From positions 1 to 36,367 of the forward strand of contig QIEB01000580.1 in assembly GCA_003229495.1 (NCBI GenBank): 36,367 nucleotides of DNA, read 5' to 3'. The notes beneath the pieces were generated by a model. That model was not told the DNA's origin and made no database searches. It worked only from the letters and a program-made list of their open reading frames with translations. Below, piece after piece: positions 4,925 to 21,068 of the stretch. Positions within the stretch are counted from its first letter, which is position 1, and every line of letters begins with the position of its first letter. Source of the DNA: Flammeovirgaceae bacterium. Lineage in GTDB: Bacteria; Bacteroidota; Bacteroidia; Cytophagales; Cyclobacteriaceae. The translations under genes and the position numbers were made by a program.

Positions 4925-6124
4925 ATGTCCAAAGACCTAATTTTCCAGACATTTCTTAGTGTAAGATGCTTTTTGCTATCTGTTCAGTGTTTGTTGACTT
5001 GGTCCGTTTGTATTGGTCAGGAAGAAAGTTTAAATACCCTGGACCTTTACCAAACAGACGGCCTGGTTAATTGTAGATTTTCATTACTGGACCAGGGTGA
5101 TTCTCTCTGGATATATGCTGCACTCGAATTTAAGCAAACAGTTGAAGATTCCTCGTTGTGGATTGAAACTTCCTGGATATCAAGCAACCAGATTTTCCTG
5201 GACTCCACGGTACTGGTGCTTGAAAACAATAAACGGGCCATTATGAAATGGGGATTCACACCAAGAACGGTGCCTACCTTGTTCACATTATCCTTGAATT
5301 GGAAAGCGCGCACCTGGACCTTTCAAGAACATTTTCCCATGAGCGCTTACCATCCATCCGGTGGTCTGTCTCTAAGACACTACTCAAAATCAATTTTAAA
5401 TACCTGGGTTCATTACCATGATAGTGTCCAGATAAATACCATGGGAAATAAAATGGTATTTACATATTTCTATGATCATGAATTTGATCCTGCCAGACCT
5501 CCCATGACCATAAGGCCAGATAAAGGAAGCGGAACTCTTGAAATCGATACTATTCTGGTACTGACTCCGGATCAAATATTTAGTCCAAACAAACCCGGTC
5601 TATATTTTTTTCAGACGGACAGCAGTTCAACCCTGGGGACAGCACTTTTTGTCTCGGACAAGCATTTTCCTCAACCACAGGAAATTAAAGAACTTTCCGA
5701 ACCACTGATCTATATTACCACCAAAGGAGAGTATCAAAAACTAAGGAAGGATCTGACTAGCAAACAAGCATTGGACAAATTCTGGTTGTCAACGGTAGGA
5801 TCTCCTGAAAAGGCCCGCAGATCAATCAAGAATTTTTATCATAATATTGAAGTGGCCAATATTTTGTTCACCAGTTACAAAGAAGGATGGAAAACTGATC
5901 GTGGAATGATCTATACGGTGTTGGGCCCTCCTTTATCAGTAGTGAAAGAGCATGAAACCGAGACCTGGTTTTATAAGGACATAGCCAATGAGGAATTAAG
6001 CTTTGTATTTAAAAAAATTAGAAATATCTTCTCAAATAATCATTACGAATTACTTAGGGATAAATCCTACGATCGTCAATGGTTTCTGGCTATTGATCGC
6101 TGGAGGGATGGGCAAATAAAATAG
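4925..6124 (+). CDS. GWxTD domain-containing exported protein
   Basis: 399-aa ORF with N-terminal hydrophobic segment and the motif 'YKEGWKTDRGMIYTVLGPP' characteristic of GWxTD proteins of Bacteroidota. Confidence 0.8.
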   Translation: MSKDLIFQTFLSVRCFLLSVQCLLTWSVCIGQEESLNTLDLYQTDGLVNCRFSLLDQGDSLWIYAALEFKQTVEDSSLWIETSWISSNQIFLDSTVLVLENNKRAIMKWGFTPRTVPTLFTLSLNWKARTWTFQEHFPMSAYHPSGGLSLRHYSKSILNTWVHYHDSVQINTMGNKMVFTYFYDHEFDPARPPMTIRPDKGSGTLEIDTILVLTPDQIFSPNKPGLYFFQTDSSSTLGTALFVSDKHFPQPQEIKELSEPLIYITTKGEYQKLRKDLTSKQALDKFWLSTVGSPEKARRSIKNFYHNIEVANILFTSYKEGWKTDRGMIYTVLGPPLSVVKEHETETWFYKDIANEELSFVFKKIRNIFSNNHYELLRDKSYDRQWFLAIDRWRDGQIK

Positions 6125-6126
6125 CC

Positions 6127-6882
6127 ATGTCACCACCAAAAACTCCTGAGAAAACTTTCCTATTTGGTACCCGTGCAGTCATGGAGGGCATAAATGCAGG
6201 ACGGGAAATTGACAAAATTCTTGTGCTTAAGAACCTAAAGAATCCATTAATTCAAGAGTTATTGAGTTTGGCCATGGAAAACCGGATACCCGTACAGAGG
6301 GTGCCCGTACAGAAACTTCAGCGCTATACCAGAAAAAATCATCAAGGCGTCGTTTGCCTGCTTTCTGCCATCAGTTACAGTTCTTTGGATCACGTGATTT
6401 CACAAGCTTTCATGGAAGGACGGGCTCCATTAATTGCCATACTTGACCGGATAACCGACGTAAGGAACTTTGGAGCTATCGCCCGGACTGCTGATGCGGC
6501 TGGCGCTGATGCCCTGGTGGTACCTCTAACCGGCCATGCCCAAGTAACAGAAGACGCTATCAAAACTTCAGCAGGGGTCTTGAACTACTTGCCAGTTTGC
6601 CGGGTAAACAGCTTAAGATCCTGTATAAAGGAGCTTCAAGATAGTGGCTTACAAGTTGTGGCCTGTTCCGAAAAAGCCAGGGAATTGATGTACTCGGTGG
6701 ATTTAACTGGCCCCACAGCTCTTCTAATGGGTTCAGAACAGAATGGTATTGGAATAGAATTGTTGGCCATCTGTGATCTTCATGTCAAAATTCCCATGGT
6801 GGGGAAAATTTCCTCTTTGAATGTGTCTGTAGCAACCGGCCTGGTGCTTTATGAGTGTGTTAGGCAAAGGTCAGGATCATAG
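6127..6882 (+). CDS. rlmB: 23S rRNA (guanosine-2'-O-)-methyltransferase RlmB (SpoU/TrmH family)
   Basis: SpoU motifs 'LDRITDVRNFGAIARTADAAGADALVVP', 'LLMGSEQNGIG' and 'IPMVGKISSLNVSVATGLVLYE'. Confidence 0.93.
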   Translation: MSPPKTPEKTFLFGTRAVMEGINAGREIDKILVLKNLKNPLIQELLSLAMENRIPVQRVPVQKLQRYTRKNHQGVVCLLSAISYSSLDHVISQAFMEGRAPLIAILDRITDVRNFGAIARTADAAGADALVVPLTGHAQVTEDAIKTSAGVLNYLPVCRVNSLRSCIKELQDSGLQVVACSEKARELMYSVDLTGPTALLMGSEQNGIGIELLAICDLHVKIPMVGKISSLNVSVATGLVLYECVRQRSGS

Positions 6883-7956
6883 GTATTTCAACATTTTATG
6901 CGCCTTAATATCAGCGGAGAAATTTCTGAATTGCTGCTCATCGTTTTTTTCACAAATGACCAATACGTTATCAATATCCGCTACCAAATAACCATCCAGT
7001 CCCTGAACAATAATTAACTTGTCCTTGGGTCCTTTTACAATACAATTCTTAGTATCGTATGCAAGGATGGTGGCCTCAAAAACATTGTTGTTTTCGTCCT
7101 TTTTCTTCATGTCATGTAAAGTTGCCCAAGAGCCAATATCGGACCATCCAAAGTCTGCCTGGACCACGTACACATTGGATGCTTTTTCCATTACCCCATA
7201 ATCAATGGAAATGTTCTTGCATTGATAGTAGACATCCTTGATAAAATTGGGCTCCTGTGGAGAATGGTATAAGGATTCTCCCTGAGCAAACAATTCTGCC
7301 ATATCAGGCAAAAACTTTTCGAATGCAGATTGGATGGTATTTACATTCCAGATAAAAATTCCGGCATTCCAAACAAAGTCCCCGCTGTCCAGAAATTTCT
7401 TCGCTAGTTCTATTCCAGGTTTTTCAGTGAATGTTTTCACTTTCTTTACCTGATCAGCTAAGTCTGGAAGAAATTGAATATATCCGTAGCCTGTCTCTGG
7501 TCTATTGGGTTTAATACCAATGGTGATGATACGATCCGAGCTAGCCGCAGATTCAACAGCAGTTAAAATTACCTCTTCGAATTCCTTCTCTTTAAAAACA
7601 GTATGATCGGAAGGTGTGACAATAATATTGGCGTTTTTGTTTTTGGCAGCAATCTTATAACTGGCATAAGCGATACATGGTGCGGTATTCCTGCCCATTG
7701 GCTCAGACAATATCTGATGGTCACTTAAATTCGGTAAATGTTCTTTTACCAGATCCACATAAGAACTGTTAGTAACTACATACACATTCTCTTGTGGACA
7801 GATACTTTTGAATCGATTATTGGTTAATTGGATTAGGGAATATCCTGTATCCAACACATCCAAAAACTGCTTGGGGCGATAGTTACGGCTATAGGGCCAA
7901 AACCGACTTCCCACTCCACCAGCCATAATTACCACATAGGTGTCCTGATTAATCAT
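6877..7956 (-). CDS. manC: Mannose-1-phosphate guanylyltransferase
   Basis: 'YVVIMAGGVGSRFWPYSRNYRPKQFLDVL' nucleotidyltransferase signature and 'ENVYVVTN...ILSEPMGRNTAPCIAYA'. Confidence 0.92.
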   Translation of the reverse strand: MINQDTYVVIMAGGVGSRFWPYSRNYRPKQFLDVLDTGYSLIQLTNNRFKSICPQENVYVVTNSSYVDLVKEHLPNLSDHQILSEPMGRNTAPCIAYASYKIAAKNKNANIIVTPSDHTVFKEKEFEEVILTAVESAASSDRIITIGIKPNRPETGYGYIQFLPDLADQVKKVKTFTEKPGIELAKKFLDSGDFVWNAGIFIWNVNTIQSAFEKFLPDMAELFAQGESLYHSPQEPNFIKDVYYQCKNISIDYGVMEKASNVYVVQADFGWSDIGSWATLHDMKKKDENNNVFEATILAYDTKNCIVKGPKDKLIIVQGLDGYLVADIDNVLVICEKNDEQQFRNFSADIKAHKMLKYL

Positions 7957-8963
7957 ATAATTCCCTCTTTTAACAGATCATGTAAATGAACAAACCCTAA
8001 TACCCGACCTTCCTCGGTAACAATTAATTGAGTAATGTTAAACTCCTGCATATTAGCCAAAGCTTGCACTGCAAAACACTCTTTATCTACAGTTTGCGGA
8101 TTGCTGGACATAATGGCTTCCGCAGTTACACTTCCTGAAATATCCTTTGATTTAAGCATTCTTCTCAAATCTCCATCTGTAATAATCCCCTTCAATATCT
8201 GCCTTTCATCCACCACAGCGGTGGCGCCCAGGCGTTTAGTAGTCATTTCCAGGATGATTTCTTCGATTGATGCATCAATCAGAACCACCGGACAATCATT
8301 ATTGGGATAAATGTCAGATACCTTCAAATACAGCTGCTTACCCAGCGAGCCACCGGGATGATATTGTGCAAAATCACTACTGCTAAACCCTCGGGCCTCC
8401 AGCAAACAAACCGCCAGCGCATCACCAAGTGCCAGGTGTACAGTAGTGCTGGTGGTGGGGGCCAGATTATGAGGACAGGCCTCCTCATTTATAGTAGCGT
8501 TTATCACGTAGTCTGCCTGTATTGCCAGTTCTGACTCCACGTTGCTTACCATAGCAATGAGTTGACATCCTGTGCGCTTAACCAAAGGTACCAGGACTTT
8601 GATCTCTGGGGTATTGCCACTTTTTGACAGCACCATTACCATGTCCTCTATCTTGATCATTCCAAGGTCACCATGTATTGCGTCCCCAGCGTGCATAAAG
8701 ATAGCCGGAGTGCCGGTAGAATTTAAGGTGGCGGTAATTTTATTGGCAATGATGGCGCTTTTGCCTATTCCTGAGACCACCACACGTCCTTTACATTGCA
8801 GAATTGCTTCCACTGAGGATACAAATCCCTGGTCGATATATCCGCTAACCTTATCAATGGCCTGGGCTTCATTAATAAGTACTTTTTTAGCTGTTTCTCT
8901 GATATTTTTTAGTAAATTCAATATTGAGATGCCCTTAAAATAAGATTGCCTAAAGATAGTCAA
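7953..8963 (-). CDS. kdsD: KpsF/GutQ family sugar isomerase (D-arabinose-5-phosphate isomerase), SIS domain plus two CBS domains
   Basis: 'GRVVVSGIGKSAIIANKITATLNSTGTPAIFMHAGDAIHGDLGMI' SIS domain; 'FAQYHPGGSLGKQL' signature; C-terminal CBS pair. The track start at 8963 is a TTG; an internal TTG near 8921 is an alternative. Confidence 0.92.
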   Translation of the reverse strand: MTIFRQSYFKGISILNLLKNIRETAKKVLINEAQAIDKVSGYIDQGFVSSVEAILQCKGRVVVSGIGKSAIIANKITATLNSTGTPAIFMHAGDAIHGDLGMIKIEDMVMVLSKSGNTPEIKVLVPLVKRTGCQLIAMVSNVESELAIQADYVINATINEEACPHNLAPTTSTTVHLALGDALAVCLLEARGFSSSDFAQYHPGGSLGKQLYLKVSDIYPNNDCPVVLIDASIEEIILEMTTKRLGATAVVDERQILKGIITDGDLRRMLKSKDISGSVTAEAIMSSNPQTVDKECFAVQALANMQEFNITQLIVTEEGRVLGFVHLHDLLKEGII

Positions 8964-11195
8964 ATTACCGAATCTATGGGGTCACAGCCTATGTTGATTG
9001 AACAAAAAGACCAACTTGAAAAAGACCGGCTTAAAGATAAGTTAAAAGAAGTATTTGGGTACAGTCAATTCAGAGGTAATCAAGAAACTATTATTAAGAA
9101 TATTCTTAAAGGTAAGAACACTTTTGTGATCATGCCTACGGGAGCCGGTAAATCATTATGCTACCAACTGCCAGCGGTGTTTTTGGAGGGAACGGCTATT
9201 GTGATCTCTCCTCTGATCGCACTAATGAAAAACCAGGTGGACGTACTCAATGCCCTGGGAGTAAATGCTCAGTTTCTTAACTCAACCTTAACCAAATCTG
9301 AGATCAACCGGGTAAAACAAGGAACACTTGAAGGAAAGGTGAAACTCCTGTACGTAGCGCCGGAATCACTTACAAAACCGGAAAACATTAGTTTTTTGAA
9401 GCAGTCAAACCTTCTTTTTGCTGCTATAGACGAAGCCCACTGTATTTCTGAATGGGGCCATGATTTCCGTCCGGAATATAGAAAGATAAAGACCATTTTA
9501 GATCAACTGGGTCAATTGCCAATAATTGCCCTGACAGCCACTGCTACTCCCAAAGTAAAATTAGACATACAGCGAAACCTGCAAATGGAGGAGGCCGACG
9601 TGTTCAAATCCTCATTTAATCGAGAGAATCTTTATTATGAGGTCCGGTCAAAAAAAGACATTAAAAAACAATTAATCAAGTTTGTCAAAGCTCATCATGG
9701 CAAATCGGGTATTGTTTACTGCCTCTCCCGTAAAACTGTACAAGAAATAGCCGAGTTTTTACAAGTGAATGATATTAAAGCTGCTCCTTATCACGCGGGA
9801 CTGGACAGTAATATCCGGATAAAAAACCAGGATGATTTTCTTAACGAAGAAATACATGTAATCGTAGCCACCATTGCCTTTGGAATGGGCATAGACAAAC
9901 CTGATGTACGGTTTGTAGTTCATTACGACACTCCTAAATCACTGGAAGGTTATTATCAGGAAACAGGTCGGGCCGGTAGAGATGGGTTAGAAGGTAATTG
10001 TCTAATGTTCTACAGTTATAATGATATAATCAAACTGGAGAAATTCAATAAAGACAAACCGGTTACTGAAAGAGAGAATGCTAAGGTTCTTCTGGAGGAA
10101 ATGGCATCATATTCGGAATCTGCGGTATGTAGAAGAAAGCAGCTACTACATTATTTTGGAGAGATATATCAGGGGAACTACTGTTCTGAGACCAAATGGT
10201 GTGATAATTGCCGATACCCCAAAGAAAAATATGAGGGAAAGGATTATGTACTTACAGGGTTAAAAACTGTAAGTCTGACCAATGAGCGATTTGGGCTGAA
10301 ACACTTGACTGATGTGATCACCGGAGTGAGTAGTCAGTACGTACAAAGTTATCGCCATTATGAACTTCCGGTATTTGGCTCCGGGAAAAACGAAGGTCAG
10401 GAAATGTGGAGTTCCATTCTCCGCCAGACTATGCTGCTGGGATTTCTTGAAAAGGATATTGAACATGTGGGAACGTTAAAGTTGACCAATAAAGGACGTT
10501 CATTTTTGGAAGAACCACACTCGGTTGAGCTTAGCAAAGACCATGATTACGGCAAGGAGGAAGAACCCAGCATCACAGACGAAGCGATCACTCGAAGATC
10601 GTATGACATATCCCTCTTTGAGTTACTGAAGGGGCTAAGAAAAAAGATTGCCAGGCAGAAGGGTTTACCGCCTTACGTGATTTTTCAGGACCCATCTCTT
10701 GAAGAAATGGCCATTATATACCCTACTAACCGGGAAGAGTTGTCCCAGATAAATGGAGTTGGTAGAGGGAAGGTGGCAAAGTTTGGACAGCCATTTATTG
10801 AGACTATAAAACATTATGTAATAGAAAACGACATAACCACTGCTTCCGATGTGGTAATAAAATCCGCTATTAATAAGTCCAAAATCAAAATACACATTAT
10901 CCAGCAAATTGACCGCAAAGTGGACCTGGAAGAAATTGCAGAATCTAAGAATATGAAAATGGAAGAACTCTTGGGAGAGATAGAACAGATCTGTTATTCC
11001 GGTACTAAGTTAAACCTCGACTATTATGTGGAACAAATTATGGACCATGACCGGCAGGATGATTTGTATGACTATTTCCTAAATGCAGAGTCTGATAATA
11101 TCAGGGAAGCTTTGAACGAATTGGAGGATGAGGACTTTTCCGAAGAGGAGTTGCGGCTGATGCGAATCAAGTTCCTTTCCGAATACGCCAACTAA
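8946..11195 (+). CDS. recQ: ATP-dependent DNA helicase RecQ
   Basis: 'FVIMPTGAGKSLCYQLPA', 'IDEAHCISEWGHDFRPEY', 'GYYQETGRAGRDG', Zn-binding 'CRRKQLLHYFGE...C..CDNC', C-terminal HRDC-like region. Track start at 8946 is TTG; ATG alternatives at 8976 and 8991. Confidence 0.95.
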   Translation: MPKDSQITESMGSQPMLIEQKDQLEKDRLKDKLKEVFGYSQFRGNQETIIKNILKGKNTFVIMPTGAGKSLCYQLPAVFLEGTAIVISPLIALMKNQVDVLNALGVNAQFLNSTLTKSEINRVKQGTLEGKVKLLYVAPESLTKPENISFLKQSNLLFAAIDEAHCISEWGHDFRPEYRKIKTILDQLGQLPIIALTATATPKVKLDIQRNLQMEEADVFKSSFNRENLYYEVRSKKDIKKQLIKFVKAHHGKSGIVYCLSRKTVQEIAEFLQVNDIKAAPYHAGLDSNIRIKNQDDFLNEEIHVIVATIAFGMGIDKPDVRFVVHYDTPKSLEGYYQETGRAGRDGLEGNCLMFYSYNDIIKLEKFNKDKPVTERENAKVLLEEMASYSESAVCRRKQLLHYFGEIYQGNYCSETKWCDNCRYPKEKYEGKDYVLTGLKTVSLTNERFGLKHLTDVITGVSSQYVQSYRHYELPVFGSGKNEGQEMWSSILRQTMLLGFLEKDIEHVGTLKLTNKGRSFLEEPHSVELSKDHDYGKEEEPSITDEAITRRSYDISLFELLKGLRKKIARQKGLPPYVIFQDPSLEEMAIIYPTNREELSQINGVGRGKVAKFGQPFIETIKHYVIENDITTASDVVIKSAINKSKIKIHIIQQIDRKVDLEEIAESKNMKMEELLGEIEQICYSGTKLNLDYYVEQIMDHDRQDDLYDYFLNAESDNIREALNELEDEDFSEEELRLMRIKFLSEYAN

Positions 11196-14271: not shown

Positions 14272-15882
14272 TCAATCGAGCAGCGAGGCTTGTTCGGAAT
14301 TGCCGATTGTCGGAGAGCCTGGTATATGGATAGTGAAACAAGTACCTTCTCCAATTTTGCTGGTTACTTCAATGTCACCTCCGATAAGTTCGGCAAACTC
14401 CTTGCACAACAATAGACCTAAACCCGCCCCTTCATTGAAAGACCCGCCATTTATTTCACTTCCTTTGAACTCAAATATACTCTGTAATTTTTCCTCACTA
14501 ATACCAATGCCGTCATCTGCTACTTCAATCATGGCAGTGCCCTCCTCACCTGTTTTAAGGCTTATTGCGATATATCCATCCTGTCTGGAAAATTTAATAG
14601 CATTGCTTATTAAATTTCTCAAAATCAACCGAAGCATGTTGGCGTCCGCATAAACCTCAATGCTATCTGGAACACTGGCTCTGAAATGAATATTCTTAGC
14701 CTTTAACCTTGATTTGACAAATAAATAGTTTTCTTCTATCAATCTTTTTAGGTCAATCTTCTTCACGTTGGGTTTGATCTGACCCAGATGTGACATTGAC
14801 CATCTTAAAAGATCATCCAGAAAGTGGGACAATCGATCCGTGGATTCAATCATTTCATTGGCTAGTGATCTCAACTCAATATCTCCGATAGAGGACAACT
14901 TCGCTCCCAAAATATTTAGAAATCCAGAAATCGTGTTAATAGGGCTTCGTAGATCATGTGATATGATGGAGAACAGTTTGTCTTTGGTCATATTGGAATG
15001 CCTCTGTTCTTTTTCCGTCTTAGACAAAGTCAGATTGAGGCGCTGCAATTCTTCATTTTGTTTTACCAGTTGTTTCTGAACTGCTCGTTTATTTTCTACA
15101 TCTTCCAGTAAGTTGCTGGTCTTACGGTATTGTACGATCCAACCAATCAATACCATAAAAAATCCAATCACCAATGAAAAGATTAGTAGATAACGCCAAT
15201 CTGTAATGGGTATATCGGTGGACCCCGAAGTAGCCGGAGCCTCAACATAAATGGTATCTTTCGAAGATTCTATTTCTTTGTTGAGAAGGTCATTGAAACT
15301 CTCAGCTTGACTTTGAATTGAATCCTGATAAAGTTGGGTCAGCATTCTAATGACCTTATTCTGGTATATAACAGCCCTGTTGAAATTTCTTCTCTTGGTT
15401 GCAATATCTGCCAGATTCTGATTTATGGACATTTGGAACGATTGGCTGGCGCTATTTTCAATAATTTCCGCAGCATCTAGATATGATATCCTTGCCAATC
15501 GGTAGTATCTTTCGGGCTCATCATTGTCTCCAAACCTCTGGTAGATGTTTCCTTTGGCTTGATGTATTTTGGCAGCTGCTATAGACTTACCTTCGCCGTT
15601 TAAAAGAGGCAGAGCACGATCGAAATAACTGATTGCTGAATTGTACTTGCCGGCCTTGTGATAGAGATATCCGATGCTAGCCAGCGCCCTTCCCACTTGT
15701 TTTTCACCTTCCTCTACAATTCGCAGGTAGTAAGCTATACTATCCTGGTCCGGCGCCCTGTCAGGGGCTTGAGCTTCCAAGGAATACGTGATCAACCAAC
15801 ATGGGGTTAGGTATAAAAAAAACAAGAAAAACCGATCGATCCTTCTTGGTGGTGAGAACGGAAAATAGTTGATCCAATGCAT
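14272..15882 (-). CDS. Membrane-anchored sensor histidine kinase with N-terminal TPR-like repeats
   Basis: H-box 'KLFSIISHDLRSPINTISGFL', N-box 'LRLILRNLISNAIKFS', G-boxes 'VADDGIGISEEKL' and 'GAGLGLLLCKEFAELIGGDI'; TPR-like N-terminus and TM segment 'YLLIFSLVIGFFMVLIGWIV'. No receiver domain. Confidence 0.93.
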   Translation of the reverse strand: MHWINYFPFSPPRRIDRFFLFFLYLTPCWLITYSLEAQAPDRAPDQDSIAYYLRIVEEGEKQVGRALASIGYLYHKAGKYNSAISYFDRALPLLNGEGKSIAAAKIHQAKGNIYQRFGDNDEPERYYRLARISYLDAAEIIENSASQSFQMSINQNLADIATKRRNFNRAVIYQNKVIRMLTQLYQDSIQSQAESFNDLLNKEIESSKDTIYVEAPATSGSTDIPITDWRYLLIFSLVIGFFMVLIGWIVQYRKTSNLLEDVENKRAVQKQLVKQNEELQRLNLTLSKTEKEQRHSNMTKDKLFSIISHDLRSPINTISGFLNILGAKLSSIGDIELRSLANEMIESTDRLSHFLDDLLRWSMSHLGQIKPNVKKIDLKRLIEENYLFVKSRLKAKNIHFRASVPDSIEVYADANMLRLILRNLISNAIKFSRQDGYIAISLKTGEEGTAMIEVADDGIGISEEKLQSIFEFKGSEINGGSFNEGAGLGLLLCKEFAELIGGDIEVTSKIGEGTCFTIHIPGSPTIGNSEQASLLD

Positions 15883-16124: not shown

Positions 16125-19100
16125 TTACCCGTCTCTCAATTCTTCTTTCATTACGAATCGCTCAAGCTGCTCTTTGATGTCATCTGGACTTATCCAATAT
16201 TGCCTGCTAAAAACCTCGTAGAACCTCCAACCTTTACTTTTTAGTATAAAGGGGACATATACATGTGCATCTTTTGCAGATATGCTTTGATGGTAGAGAT
16301 CATCATCTGTAAGGATCAGGCCCACAAATTGAGTGTTCCGGCGAAGTACCAGATCGGCAAATGGGAGCGATTCCTCTAAGGAATGAGCGTTGTTTGGAAA
16401 CGTCATAGCTTTGAGTTTTTTCTTTAGGTACCAACTACTTTGGAACTGATTGTCTTCAGATACCATTTGCTGAGGAATACCTTCAGAAATTTCCCAGGCA
16501 TAACTTAAGTATTTCTTTAGCAATTTGGGACCTTCATTCTTACTTTCCCCAACTTTAAGATCCTTTGGCATTATGCTGGAGATCACGTAGACCTTCTCTC
16601 TTGCCCGGGTAATTGCAACATTCAACCGGTTTTCTCCTCCAACTGCATTAAGGCTACCAAAATTCATGCTCAGTTTACCTTTAATATCATGGGCGTAACC
16701 AATGGAGAAAATAATTATATCCTTTTCGTCACCTTGTACATTTTCAATATTCTTTATGATCAAAGTAGAGGGTAATGGCTGGGCGGATTGGATGGCCCGG
16801 TCTTCCAGGCACTCCATGATATATTGTTGTTGTTGAATATTAAAGGTTACAATACCAATGGTTTTATCAGGTGTTTCCTTGCATATTTTATCTACCAGCA
16901 TCACTACTTCCATAGCTTCGTTCTGGTTAATGCTCCGTTCCCACAAACCATTAATCTTTATGTATTGGATAGCAGGCGCCCCTTCCTTGATAACCTGGTA
17001 ATCTGGAAGCATTCTTAATTTCCCCTGGTAAAAATGTTGGTTGGAAAATGCGATCAGGTCCAGGGACTTACTTCTATAATGTCCTTGAAGAGGAATCTGA
17101 GGAAGGTGTTTACTGGCAAGGTCTAGCAAAGAATCAATTTCAAGATCAATGTCCTCTGGATCCTCCTCTTGCCATCTGATGGTATACAAGTCATTTGGAG
17201 TCAACTGTTTGCTATCTCCTGTGACAACTACCTGGCGGGCCCGGTAAATGGAAGGGATTCCTTTTTCAGCAAAACACTGGGAAGCTTCGTCAAAGATTAC
17301 CAAATCAAACAGCACTTTCATAGGAGTGATGGCACTTACTGATTCCGGGCTAGCCAACCAGCATGGAACTAATGTGAATAGTTCATCACTAAAATGTGAC
17401 AAAAGTTTTCTAATAGGCCAAATTCTCCTTTTCTTGGAAACCTGATGTCTAAGGTCCCGGTACGAAATCATATTGTTTAGCCGGTTATACTTGACATCCT
17501 TGTATACATATTCTCGCAGCTTTAACAATAATATCTCCTGGCTGATTTCGAACTTCATTTTTACCTGGTTCCGATATTCCTCTTCCAACTGCTTCAGTTT
17601 CAATGAAGATACCATTCTCAACAATGGATATTTCACCTCAATGTGTTCTATCCATGCAAGTTTCAAACTGTTATCAAACAAAACCACCACATCGATCCCC
17701 TCTTTTTCCGAGCAAAGTTCATAAAGCTTTGCAATGGCAGATTTTTCGGTGGCAGTAAAGCTTTGCTCCAACTTATCGAATTCACATAAATTTTCGAATT
17801 CCTTGTTCAAAGACCCTTGCAGTTCTTTTTTCAATTTTAGATCACCCAAAATGAATGCGATTTGCTTTGGCAGTAAGTACCTAATCCACACCTTTTTCTT
17901 TTCAGGAAGTTCAGTAAGTATGGTAAGAAGCTCTTCTAACAACTTTTTCAGGTCTTCATATGACAGCTTTGATACGTTAAAATACTCATTAAAATTGCGC
18001 TGACTAACGAAGATTTTTTGTGCTTCGATGGCCTTCTTTTGATAATAAAACCAGGCTTGGAAATCAACCTGATGGTACGTTGTTGGTATTTCCTTTAGCC
18101 AGGAGTACGCTTTAAGTTTCGATAAATTATGTTCCAGATTAAGACGATTATCCATCTTCTCCAGCAGCATGCTGAAACCATCAGGATTTTTCAACAAGCC
18201 ATTGGCCTTCAGTACCCGTTGATACTGCATTTTCTCTTTGCTGAACAAATTCCAATTAAGCCATTTGAATATATTTTTGCGGGATTCAATCCGTTGTTGA
18301 ATAATCTCCTGAAACGAACCTAATTCACTTGTGGGGATGCTTACTTCGGGGCCCTCCTTTTTATAGCAATTGAGCACTACCCGTTCGATGTTCGCCAAGC
18401 CCAAATGATGCTTGTGAATATCCTTATAGTCCACTTGGTGATTAAAAAATCTATATACCGTTGGATCCTTGGTCAGGCTGACAAACTTGAGTATGTCTTC
18501 CCTACTATTGATAATTTCCTCCAGAGTTTCGAAAGAAACGGTAGTATTTAATATTATTGAAGCCTTTTGAACAGTGTCATCAGCGTACTTTTTGATCTCA
18601 TCAATCAAGTTGCTTATCGACTTCAGGTCTTTGATGGTAAAGGAATGAAACGACCTGCGATCTTTCCATAGAAAGTCAGGTTGATTAAGCTGCTGCCAAT
18701 AGTTATTATAAACATTCAGTTTTCGTTTGAATGCTTCCGCCTCGATCATCGGAAAATGTTTGTACTCTTGTTTCAGGTTTATTGACGGTCCGTCTAACTC
18801 TGATGTCAGATATAACTCTTTCACTGATATTCCACATTCCTGTTGGTCAAAAAGCGCCTGCTTAAACTCTTCAAACTCCTCGGTAATCTGATCGGTCCTT
18901 CGACTGACCTGTAGGAATTGTCTTTCCAATTGAATAGCATCCAGGCTGCTATTCAATCGCTTATAGTCATCTAGATTTTCTATTTGCTCCAGAATTTGGG
19001 CATACAGTTCCTTTCTGTCGTTCTTAAAATCATGGACCAACGCTATGAATTTGCCCATCCCCACCTCCTGCAATCTCTCGGAAACTACATCCAGTGCAGC

Positions 19101-20138
19101 TCTTTTCTGACATACCAGAAGCACCCTTTTACCTCTGGATGCATAGTCTGCCATTACATTGGATATTAATTGGGATTTACCGGTACCGGGTGGCCCTTGT
19201 ATTACCAAGGATTTTCCAGATTTTATAGCCGTTAACGCATTCTCTTGAAAAGCATCTAATTTAAACGGAGTTACCGTTCGTTCCTCCTTTAAAGAGGATA
19301 AAAAACTAAATTCATGGGTGGCACCATCAAAATGCTGGCCACTGAAAAAAGAGCTAAGATCCAAAATGGATTTGTCTTCAAGAAGAGTCAAATAGTCCGG
19401 GACCAAATATGATCCTGCCTGTGGAAATAACCCCAATATTGCCTCAGGCTGCAAGGTAATAGTTCCTTGCTTAAAGTGTTCTTTATACTCAGCCTTGTTG
19501 AATGCCCTGAATGGCAACAGATTATCTGTGAAATTCTGTTGATTAAAATTTAATTCGATTCCACTATTTTTAAACAATTCATAGAGTGCCACCCGAAAGG
19601 ACCTACTTTCCGAAGGAAACTCCTCAAAATTGAAATCCATGAGCTGCTCATCAACCGTAACTTTATTGAAATAGGCATAAGCCAATAGAAAACTCCGGTT
19701 CAAATAACAATACTCATCTGTTCTGGCTTTTAGAATCCACCCGTTTTCCTCTATGTGCAGGGACACCGGGAAAAACAACAAGGGTGCACGCACCGGGGTG
19801 CCATCGGAAAAAGACCCACAAGCAAAAGGCCATGCCATGAAAAGATCCTTGGCACCCCGTTCTTCCAACACAAACCGGTCAAAACGTGCTAATTTTCGCA
19901 GTTTTTGACTTACCATATTGTTGGTTTCATCCCGGCTGTCCAGTACCCGGCAAAGGAATACTTCTTTCTTTCTTTTGATAAGTTGTTCTACAATCGAAAA
20001 AGCGGGTTTTCTATTGAGAAAATCAAGTTCATTTATATCTACAAACCGACTGGCGGCTAATCTTAGTAACAATAACGATTTATTCCTGGACGTCAGGTTG
20101 GTCAGGCGGCGCAGATACGAATTGAGGATTCTATGCAT
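16125..20138 (-). CDS. Large SF1 (UPF1-like) helicase, DUF4011-like N-terminus, C-terminal Vsr/MTES_1575-like nuclease-fold region
   Basis: 1337 aa; N-term 'LRRLTNLTSRNKSLLLLRL'; Walker A 'VIQGPPGTGKSQLISNV'; Walker B 'LVIFDEASQCF'; 'VVVTGDSKQLTPND', 'LQGHYRSKS', 'NVQGDEKDIIIFS', 'NRLNVAITRAREKVYVISS'; C-term 'ADLVLRR...LYHQSISAKDAHVYVPFILKSKGWRFYEVFSRQYW'. Confidence 0.88.
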   Translation of the reverse strand: MHRILNSYLRRLTNLTSRNKSLLLLRLAASRFVDINELDFLNRKPAFSIVEQLIKRKKEVFLCRVLDSRDETNNMVSQKLRKLARFDRFVLEERGAKDLFMAWPFACGSFSDGTPVRAPLLFFPVSLHIEENGWILKARTDEYCYLNRSFLLAYAYFNKVTVDEQLMDFNFEEFPSESRSFRVALYELFKNSGIELNFNQQNFTDNLLPFRAFNKAEYKEHFKQGTITLQPEAILGLFPQAGSYLVPDYLTLLEDKSILDLSSFFSGQHFDGATHEFSFLSSLKEERTVTPFKLDAFQENALTAIKSGKSLVIQGPPGTGKSQLISNVMADYASRGKRVLLVCQKRAALDVVSERLQEVGMGKFIALVHDFKNDRKELYAQILEQIENLDDYKRLNSSLDAIQLERQFLQVSRRTDQITEEFEEFKQALFDQQECGISVKELYLTSELDGPSINLKQEYKHFPMIEAEAFKRKLNVYNNYWQQLNQPDFLWKDRRSFHSFTIKDLKSISNLIDEIKKYADDTVQKASIILNTTVSFETLEEIINSREDILKFVSLTKDPTVYRFFNHQVDYKDIHKHHLGLANIERVVLNCYKKEGPEVSIPTSELGSFQEIIQQRIESRKNIFKWLNWNLFSKEKMQYQRVLKANGLLKNPDGFSMLLEKMDNRLNLEHNLSKLKAYSWLKEIPTTYHQVDFQAWFYYQKKAIEAQKIFVSQRNFNEYFNVSKLSYEDLKKLLEELLTILTELPEKKKVWIRYLLPKQIAFILGDLKLKKELQGSLNKEFENLCEFDKLEQSFTATEKSAIAKLYELCSEKEGIDVVVLFDNSLKLAWIEHIEVKYPLLRMVSSLKLKQLEEEYRNQVKMKFEISQEILLLKLREYVYKDVKYNRLNNMISYRDLRHQVSKKRRIWPIRKLLSHFSDELFTLVPCWLASPESVSAITPMKVLFDLVIFDEASQCFAEKGIPSIYRARQVVVTGDSKQLTPNDLYTIRWQEEDPEDIDLEIDSLLDLASKHLPQIPLQGHYRSKSLDLIAFSNQHFYQGKLRMLPDYQVIKEGAPAIQYIKINGLWERSINQNEAMEVVMLVDKICKETPDKTIGIVTFNIQQQQYIMECLEDRAIQSAQPLPSTLIIKNIENVQGDEKDIIIFSIGYAHDIKGKLSMNFGSLNAVGGENRLNVAITRAREKVYVISSIMPKDLKVGESKNEGPKLLKKYLSYAWEISEGIPQQMVSEDNQFQSSWYLKKKLKAMTFPNNAHSLEESLPFADLVLRRNTQFVGLILTDDDLYHQSISAKDAHVYVPFILKSKGWRFYEVFSRQYWISPDDIKEQLERFVMKEELRDG

Positions 20139-20177: not shown

Positions 20178-21068
20178 TCAAAAATCCAAATATGGATAAA
20201 CTCTAAGATAAGTACTATCGTTGATTATATGTATCTTTTTTATTTCTTCTACATTTTGAAATGATCCGTGTTGATCCCGGTAGGTAATTATGGCCTTAGC
20301 CTGATTGAATGAAATGTAGGGGTGTGAGGCAATTTTTTTAAAATCATCAGTATTTAAATTGATCTTGTTAAGGTGAGTGTCAGGTTTAACAAAAAGTTGC
20401 TTGTTGAGGTTCATCTGTACTTCTGGCGACAGACCGTAAACCTCTTTAAGTTGTTCCATCGAGTAATATCCACCCAATAAATTCCTATACTTTACCACAC
20501 GCTTACTCAAGACCGGCCCTATGCCATAGATGCCCTGTAGCCAAACGCTGTCAACCTTATTTAGGTCTTTCCTGGTGGTGTTTTTATAAGTGACTTTTTT
20601 TGAACGTCGCTTTTGTGCTGTTTGTTCATTAGCATCCGGCACCGAATCCATAGGATCAAGGTCAACCCAAGGACTTAGTGCAATCCAAATAGAATCGGTC
20701 ATTCCAAAAATTTTTTTCAGATCCTTCGGTTGGTAAAAACGTCCTCCTGATTCCCGGTACTTGATCATATTAGCAGCTACAAATAGCTCTAGTCCCCATG
20801 AGACCAGACTGTCATATGCAATTGTATTGGGATCGAATGATCGTATGGAGTGGTGCTTTGCGGGAAATGTGTCTTGAAATGCTTTAAGTATCTGGGATAT
20901 GCTATCCAGGAATACAGGATCTTCAAGGTCGAATTTCTGAGCAGAGGGGAATCGTGTAACCCCGAAATGAATCACCATAAGTAGGGCTATTAACACCAGG
21001 TAACCATTTGCCTCTGTTCTGGAAAACCCAAAACTACTCCGGATCCAACATACTATTGTTCTGTACAA
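20178..21068 (-). CDS. Helix-hairpin-helix (ComEA-like) domain protein
   Basis: 296-aa ORF with N-terminal TM and repeated HhH motifs: 'LNKVDSVWLQGIYGIGPVLSKRVVKYRNLLGGYYSMEQLKEVYG', 'INLNTDDFKKIASHPYISFNQAKAIITYRDQHGSFQNVEEIKKI'. Confidence 0.88.
   Translation of the reverse strand: MYRTIVCWIRSSFGFSRTEANGYLVLIALLMVIHFGVTRFPSAQKFDLEDPVFLDSISQILKAFQDTFPAKHHSIRSFDPNTIAYDSLVSWGLELFVAANMIKYRESGGRFYQPKDLKKIFGMTDSIWIALSPWVDLDPMDSVPDANEQTAQKRRSKKVTYKNTTRKDLNKVDSVWLQGIYGIGPVLSKRVVKYRNLLGGYYSMEQLKEVYGLSPEVQMNLNKQLFVKPDTHLNKINLNTDDFKKIASHPYISFNQAKAIITYRDQHGSFQNVEEIKKIHIINDSTYLRVYPYLDF

What the first reader, a model, noticed from the sequence alone, without database searches (positions are those of the whole stretch)
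16125..20138. DUF4011-like SF1 helicase with a C-terminal nuclease-fold domain that appears catalytically eroded
Seen: Walker A (about 19170-19200) and DEASQ (about 17277-17292) are separated by a very long, probably coiled-coil insertion, and the last ~100 aa follow the helicase core. Knowledge: DUF4011-helicase-Vsr proteins are reported as single-gene antiphage candidates (the Hhe type), and Vsr/MTES_1575-like domains usually carry a 'D...(I/V)E(C/V)DG..YH.S..ARDR......GW...R.WS..W' pattern. Here the segment reads 'ADLVLRR..QFVGLILTDDDLYHQSISAKDAHVYVPFILKSKGWRFYEVFSRQYW': the YH, S.A.D and GW...S..W frame is kept, but the acidic residue of the usual E.DG seems replaced (LILTDDD). Inference: either a non-cleaving DNA-binding module or a divergent active site, making this a sub-type of the helicase-nuclease defence family or a repurposed housekeeping version.
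Basis: partly seen in the sequence, partly recalled or inferred. Interest (0 to 1): 0.6.

Follow-up and report, generated by a model that had tools for sequence, protein, structure and literature searches.

The report
Core Cytophagales helicase with altered pseudo-nuclease
This is a helicase gene that nearly every member of one bacterial family keeps in a fixed chromosomal place; its tail resembles a DNA-cutting domain whose catalytic glutamate was lost long ago and replaced by a different, strictly conserved motif, so it looks like a resident cell gene related to anti-phage proteins rather than a mobile defence gene.

Summary
ORF 16125-20138 (-) encodes a 1337-aa DUF4011/SF1 (UPF1-like) helicase whose last ~75 residues are homologous to the Vsr-like MTES_1575 nuclease domain. 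The usual catalytic Glu (ECDG) is Leu1276 here.

Two points change the interpretation. (1) The gene is a resident chromosomal gene, not an accessory defence gene. It is found in 143 of 149 Cyclobacteriaceae genomes and 125 of 193 across the order Cytophagales, nearly always as one copy, lies among housekeeping genes with conserved synteny, and is inherited largely vertically. (2) The site is not randomly decayed. Among 89 orthologues Glu is never present at 1276, but the next residues are T-D-D with both Asp invariant. D1278, D1279 and W1304 are the only invariant residues after position 1196. A sister family keeps ECEG, and one lineage between them reads LCED, so loss was ancestral and stepwise. 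The putative first catalytic Asp (D1262) is missing in 4 of 89 orthologues, while key ATPase residues never vary.

Most likely reading: an active SF1 helicase in nucleic-acid maintenance with a repurposed, non-cleaving Vsr-like module. It fails the Hhe and ProA membership cut-offs. Structure prediction was inconclusive. Function is inferred, not shown.

The parts
16125..20138 (-). 1337-aa DUF4011 / SF1 UPF1-like helicase with Vsr-like C-terminal domain
19689..19931 (-). DUF4011 match, aa 70-150
   Evidence: Pfam PF13195 35.8 bits over cut-off 22.2
19173..19196 (-). Walker A GPPGTGKS, aa 315-322; K321 invariant in 89 of 89 orthologues
17499..18938 (-). long insertion between motifs Ia and II, aa 401-880; least conserved part (mean pairwise identity 0.28), mostly helix in a low-confidence model
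17277..17291 (-). motif II DEASQ, aa 950-954; D950 and E951 invariant
16599..17222 (-). helicase motifs III-VI (GDxxQL, GHYRS, VQGDE, RLNVAITRAR), aa 973-1180
16179..16373 (-). Vsr/MTES_1575-related C-terminal domain, aa 1256-1320
16353..16355 (-). D1262, position of the first catalytic Asp; 85 of 89 orthologues
16302..16313 (-). L1276-T1277-D1278-D1279, replacing E-C-(D/E)-G of intact relatives; both Asp invariant in 89 orthologues
20178..21068 (-). upstream ComEA-like helix-hairpin-helix protein on the same strand, 39 bp gap, likely co-transcribed (inference)
   Evidence: Pfam HHH_3, TIGR00426 over cut-off; at position -1 on the same strand in the window and 21 of the relatives' loci

Best explanation
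A resident chromosomal SF1 (UPF1-like) helicase of the order Cytophagales. Shown by sequence: helicase core strictly kept; a C-terminal Vsr/MTES_1575 relative that lost its catalytic Glu, flanking Arg and (mostly) His in an ancestor and then fixed an invariant T-D-D motif; near-universal single-copy presence in Cyclobacteriaceae with housekeeping neighbours. Inferred: the protein is an ATP-driven translocase (5'-3', as in UPF1/SMUBP2-type SF1B enzymes) working on host DNA or RNA in repair or replication maintenance. The helical insertion would form an arm on the first RecA domain, and the former nuclease domain would act as a non-cleaving nucleic-acid-binding or regulatory module in which T-D-D and W1304 form the functional surface.
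For: Present in 143 of 149 Cyclobacteriaceae (nearly always one copy), 125 of 193 order-wide, 10 of 10 in sister family f22. Conserved synteny with RecQ, PurD, PSP1, HHH, HemA and FloA. No defence gene called among the other window proteins scanned; the RecQ gene rings DpdF models but passes the RecQ cut-off. Gene tree agrees with RpoB on the f22/order split, the f2, f13 and f22 groups and two f1 pairs. ATPase residues K321, D950, E951 and R1178 are never changed in 89 orthologues, whereas D1262 is changed in 4 (S, A, N, E) and position 1276 is never E. D1278, D1279 and W1304 are invariant. Purifying selection on the tail: dN 0.024 vs dS 0.15 in the closest pair. A second, intact ProA-type gene coexists with the altered core gene in genome G034.
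Against: No experiment and no usable structure: the AlphaFold models are poor (pLDDT 59.5 and 36.4) and the PDB fold search found nothing significant. Being resident does not exclude constitutive defence. The gene is absent from several families of the order, so it is not essential throughout. E. coli Vsr itself has no acid at this position (IFTHGCFWH), so loss of Glu alone does not prove loss of cleavage. The protein evolves roughly four times faster than RpoB (median end branches 0.87 vs 0.22).
Confidence: 0.6

Rival explanations
1. A fixed, constitutive innate defence protein: a single-gene relative of Hhe/ProA that became part of the chromosome and restricts incoming DNA with helicase activity plus a DNA-sensing tail.
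For: Closest named families are anti-phage ones: PDC-S37 2.6e-152, ProA 4.3e-155, Hhe 7e-94. Inactivated Vsr domains are described at the C-termini of Druantia I/II helicases (PMC12458937).
Against: No defence neighbours, near-universal presence, single copy, largely vertical inheritance. Far below the family cut-offs.
Confidence: 0.22
2. The tail is still a nuclease with a rearranged active site: D1262 with the invariant T-D-D binds metal, in the way that Vsr works without a Glu at this position.
For: D1278 and D1279 are as invariant as the Walker A lysine. E. coli Vsr reads IFTHGCFWH with Phe where MTES_1575 has Glu. The window protein itself keeps H1283 and D1290 at positions that line up by eye with Vsr H69 and D97.
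Against: D1262 is replaced in 4 of 89 orthologues. Among the 89 Cytophagales orthologues plus two outlier relatives (91 sequences), position 1283 is His in only 15, mostly Tyr or Phe. The Arg residues at 1291, 1295 and 1308 that are invariant in intact relatives are not conserved. The alignment to Vsr is not supported by profile comparison (0.4%).
Confidence: 0.15
3. An ordinary decaying domain: the tail is slowly degenerating and has no function.
For: Faster evolution of the tail (0.39 mean pairwise identity vs 0.56 in the helicase core). One far relative, L078, has a degenerate tail.
Against: Three invariant residues and 13 further positions above 85% in the last ~140 aa; dN well below dS. 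No orthologue in the 89-sequence alignment lacks the domain.
Confidence: 0.03

Closest known systems
ProA / PDC-S37 (NF058533, PDLC05009): DUF4011 - SF1 helicase - MTES_1575 nuclease - DUF3320 anti-phage protein
   Same: DUF4011, long insertion, SF1 core and Vsr-like tail in the same order; E 4.3e-155 and 2.6e-152
   Different: 518 vs 1500-bit cut-off; no DUF3320; ECDG..H replaced by LTDD; resident single-copy gene
Hhe (NF042953, PDLC02194; DefenseFinder Gao_Hhe)
   Same: DUF4011-helicase-Vsr architecture
   Different: 315 vs 2000-bit cut-off; shorter; active-site Glu absent; not in a defence context
MTES_1575 Vsr-like REase domain (PF18741; described in PMC3710099)
   Same: D...motif...GW...S..W frame; profile homology 96%, 4e-9
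   Different: below the gathering score (26.3 vs 38.2); E of ECDG, and R1291, R1295 and R1308 not kept
Inactivated Vsr tails of Druantia type I/II YprA helicases (PMC12458937)
   Same: Helicase with a predicted inactive Vsr C-terminal domain
   Different: Those are YprA-family (SF2, general knowledge) helicases in defence systems; this is an SF1 resident gene
DUF4011 core gene flanking defence hotspot cDHS1 of Pseudomonas aeruginosa (PMC10250203)
   Same: A large DUF4011 gene that is core, found in every isolate examined
   Different: Different phylum; its tail was not examined here; it borders a defence hotspot

Membership tests
SF1 UPF1-like helicase | Walker A, DEAxQ, GDxxQL, YRS, VQGxE and R.NVA.TRA motifs intact | tested here: met
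   Motifs present; K321, D950, E951, Q1135 and R1178 invariant in 89 orthologues; best PDB relatives UPF1, SEN1 and SMUBP-2
Hhe anti-phage protein | Curated NCBIfam score cut-off (2000 bits) | tested here: not met
   315.4 bits
Hhe anti-phage protein | Accessory, defence-associated genomic context | tested here: not met
   Single-copy resident gene among housekeeping genes
Hhe anti-phage protein | Protection against phage | not testable with these tools
   needs a phage assay
ProA / PDC-S37 | Curated NCBIfam score cut-off (1500 bits) | tested here: not met
   518.5 bits; a true ProA in G034 scores 1618.7
ProA / PDC-S37 | C-terminal DUF3320 domain after the nuclease (present in the two PDC-S37-type relatives scanned) | tested here: not met
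   Absent in the window protein; present in L081 and L084
MTES_1575 nuclease domain | Pfam gathering score | tested here: not met
   26.3 vs 38.2 bits; f22 relatives pass with 79.7 and 76.8
MTES_1575 nuclease domain | Catalytic Glu of E-x-(D/E)-G | tested here: not met
   Never E in 89 orthologues; E in 9 of 9 f22 and 2 of 2 Hhe-like sequences; ECDG in all 14 further relatives whose motif could be read
MTES_1575 nuclease domain | Homologous domain | tested here: met
   Profile-profile 98.9% to f22 and 96% to intact tails; sequence-based only
Vsr (E. coli type) | Vsr fold with D51/T63/H69/D97 constellation | tested here: inconclusive
   hhalign 0.4%; fold search of a low-confidence model gave no significant match; residue correspondence is by eye and Vsr catalytic residues are from general knowledge

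The most novel reading that the evidence does not exclude
A whole order of bacteria carries a resident helicase in which an anti-phage-type Vsr nuclease domain was converted, stepwise (ECEG to LCED to h-T-D-D), into a new functional site that is as invariant as the ATPase motifs: either a new metal-dependent catalytic site or a dedicated recognition module. That would be a domestication of a defence-type helicase-nuclease into core genome maintenance.
Probability: 0.25. Interest if true: 0.62.

Novelty: new variant of a known kind. Interest (0 to 1): 0.42.

Why it matters
Annotation models tie this protein to anti-phage families (PADLOC PDC-S37 at E 2.6e-152, NCBIfam ProA at 4e-155), yet across Cytophagales it behaves as a resident gene. 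Counting it as defence would inflate defence inventories in that order. If the T-D-D site is functional, it gives a stepwise example of a nuclease domain being re-used inside a helicase, with intact sister proteins available for direct biochemical comparison.

Tried and rejected
Foldseek of the C-terminal model: best E 1.9, no meaningful match. hhalign against single E. coli Vsr: no support. HemA as a marker for a mirror tree: correlation 0.32, weakened by paralogues and saturation; replaced by RpoB. RpoB distance correlation is 0.59 overall but only 0.16 inside the order, so vertical inheritance rests on tree clades, synteny and prevalence, not on that number. HHH protein as an obligate partner: rejected, it is present in all 26 genomes tested, including family members that lack the helicase. 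Paper searches for ProA and for Vsr catalytic residues returned nothing useful. The Gao 2020 origin of Hhe is from general knowledge; a held paper names it 'Gao Hhe'.

Full report
OBSERVATION. The ORF at 16125-20138 (-) is real: 1337 aa, ATG start, and the only match of its kind in its genome. Pfam finds DUF4011 (35.8 bits, cut-off 22.2), AAA_11 and AAA_12, and a sub-threshold MTES_1575 nuclease match at aa 1261-1327 (26.3 vs 38.2). The nearest solved sequences are UPF1, SEN1/NAM7 and SMUBP-2, that is, UPF1-like SF1 helicases. The long insertion is shared by relatives (468-654 aa between Walker A and motif II in five of them), so it is a family trait; its coiled-coil nature is not established.

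WHERE IT COMES FROM. The window lies in a MAG whose named close relatives are labelled Cyclobacteriaceae, Flammeovirgaceae or Bacteroidia, so I place it in Cyclobacteriaceae, order Cytophagales (inference from those titles).

DISTRIBUTION. The gene is found in 143 of 149 sampled genomes of its family and, with rare split-contig exceptions, once per genome. It is in 125 of 193 genomes of the order, missing from certain families and reduced genomes, and in 10 of 10 genomes of one family, f22, of another order in the class. Class-wide only 15 of 197 genomes match at E <= 1e-60. This is the pattern of a resident gene with some lineage losses, not of a sporadic defence gene.

NEIGHBOURHOOD. Window neighbours are housekeeping: RecQ, PurD, PSP1, HemA, FloA, NfeD, ProRS, dihydropteroate synthase, CdaA, SpoU methylase. 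Apart from the helicase, no defence system is called by PADLOC among the window proteins scanned; the RecQ gene rings DpdF models, but it passes the RecQ equivalog cut-off. The order of these genes is kept in many relatives. A ComEA-like helix-hairpin-helix gene lies directly upstream on the same strand in the window and 21 of the relatives' loci, usually within 130 bp; a second sub-clade has an SDR gene there instead. The HHH gene is present in all 26 genomes tested, including family members without the helicase, so it is a neighbour and perhaps co-transcribed, but not an obligate partner.

INHERITANCE. In trees of 29 genomes the helicase and RpoB agree on the f22/order split (100/100 in both), on the f2, f13 and f22 groups and on two f1 pairs; one helicase pairing (G044_f9 with G039_f4) disagrees. 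Distances correlate at 0.59 overall, but only 0.16 inside the order. I read this as largely vertical with possible exceptions.

THE C-TERMINAL SITE. I aligned 89 Cytophagales orthologues, 9 from f22 and 2 Hhe-like proteins. At 1276 intact relatives have E in 11 of 11; Cytophagales never have E (L 58, M 6, F 6, I 5, N 4, R 3, others). Position 1277 is T in 97% (mostly C in intact relatives), 1278 is D in 89 of 89, 1279 is D in 89 of 89 (G in intact relatives). R1291, R1295 and R1308, invariant in the intact sets, are lost; position 1283 (His in the Hhe-like proteins, Phe in f22) is His in only 15 of the 91 sequences aligned there (the 89 orthologues plus two outlier relatives). D1262 is kept in 85 of 89, replaced by S, A, N or E in the rest. 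In the whole protein 54 positions are invariant, and only three lie after 1196: D1278, D1279 and W1304. In the three closest informative pairs the tail's dN is well below dS (0.024/0.15, 0.131/1.11, 0.155/0.81). Fourteen further relatives across the phylum, all those whose motif could be read, show ECDG. A core-helicase tree places f22 (ECEG), then L043 (LCED), then Cytophagales (h-T-D-D) in order, with support of 88-98. So Glu was probably lost once before the order radiated and a new motif was fixed afterwards.

WHAT THE SITE MEANS. Two arguments pull in different directions. Against cleavage: the Glu, the Arg residues and mostly the His are gone, and D1262, which should be indispensable in a PD-(D/E)xK or Vsr enzyme, is replaced in four orthologues while the key ATPase residues never are. 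For possible cleavage: E. coli Vsr itself has Phe at the Glu position (IFTHGCFWH, sequence; its catalytic roles are general knowledge), and the invariant D-D could bind metal. Both proposals are inference. The structural models were too poor to decide.

MEMBERSHIP. It is a relative, not a member, of ProA/PDC-S37 and Hhe: far below the curated cut-offs, without DUF3320, without the catalytic motif, and in a resident context. The contrast is visible inside one genome: G034 carries both the altered core gene and a full ProA-type gene with ECDG that passes the ProA cut-off at 1618.7 bits.

PRECEDENT. Inactivated Vsr tails on defence helicases are described for Druantia I/II (PMC12458937), and a large DUF4011 gene is core in Pseudomonas aeruginosa (PMC10250203). 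Hence 'new variant of a known kind'.

CONCLUSION. Best supported: a resident UPF1-like SF1 helicase in nucleic-acid maintenance with a repurposed, probably non-cleaving Vsr-like module (0.6). Rivals are fixed innate defence (0.22), altered catalysis (0.15) and plain decay (0.03).

Noticed in passing
window 20178-21068 (-): ComEA-like protein with helix-hairpin-helix repeats and a probable N-terminal membrane segment, 39 bp upstream of the helicase; this order is kept in the window and 21 relatives' loci, which suggests an operon.
   Followed up: partly
window 14272-15882 (-): TPR histidine kinase inserted directly downstream of the helicase in this genus and a few relatives; other genomes go straight to the PSP1 region.
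   Followed up: no
L084 (genome G034) 5370-10058 (+): A ProA-type anti-phage protein with intact ECDG coexists in the same genome with the altered core helicase.
   Followed up: partly
L043 1456-5292 (-): A relative from another family of the class reads LCED at the active-site position and branches between the intact and altered groups: a possible intermediate.
   Followed up: yes
L085 4406-8485 (-) and 8942-10081 (-): A second DUF4011-like helicase with intact ECDG in genome G029, next to a PADLOC candidate PDC-S01 gene.
   Followed up: no
window 8946-11195 (+): RecQ is called DpdF by PADLOC models although it passes the RecQ equivalog cut-off: an example of a housekeeping helicase ringing defence models.
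   Followed up: no
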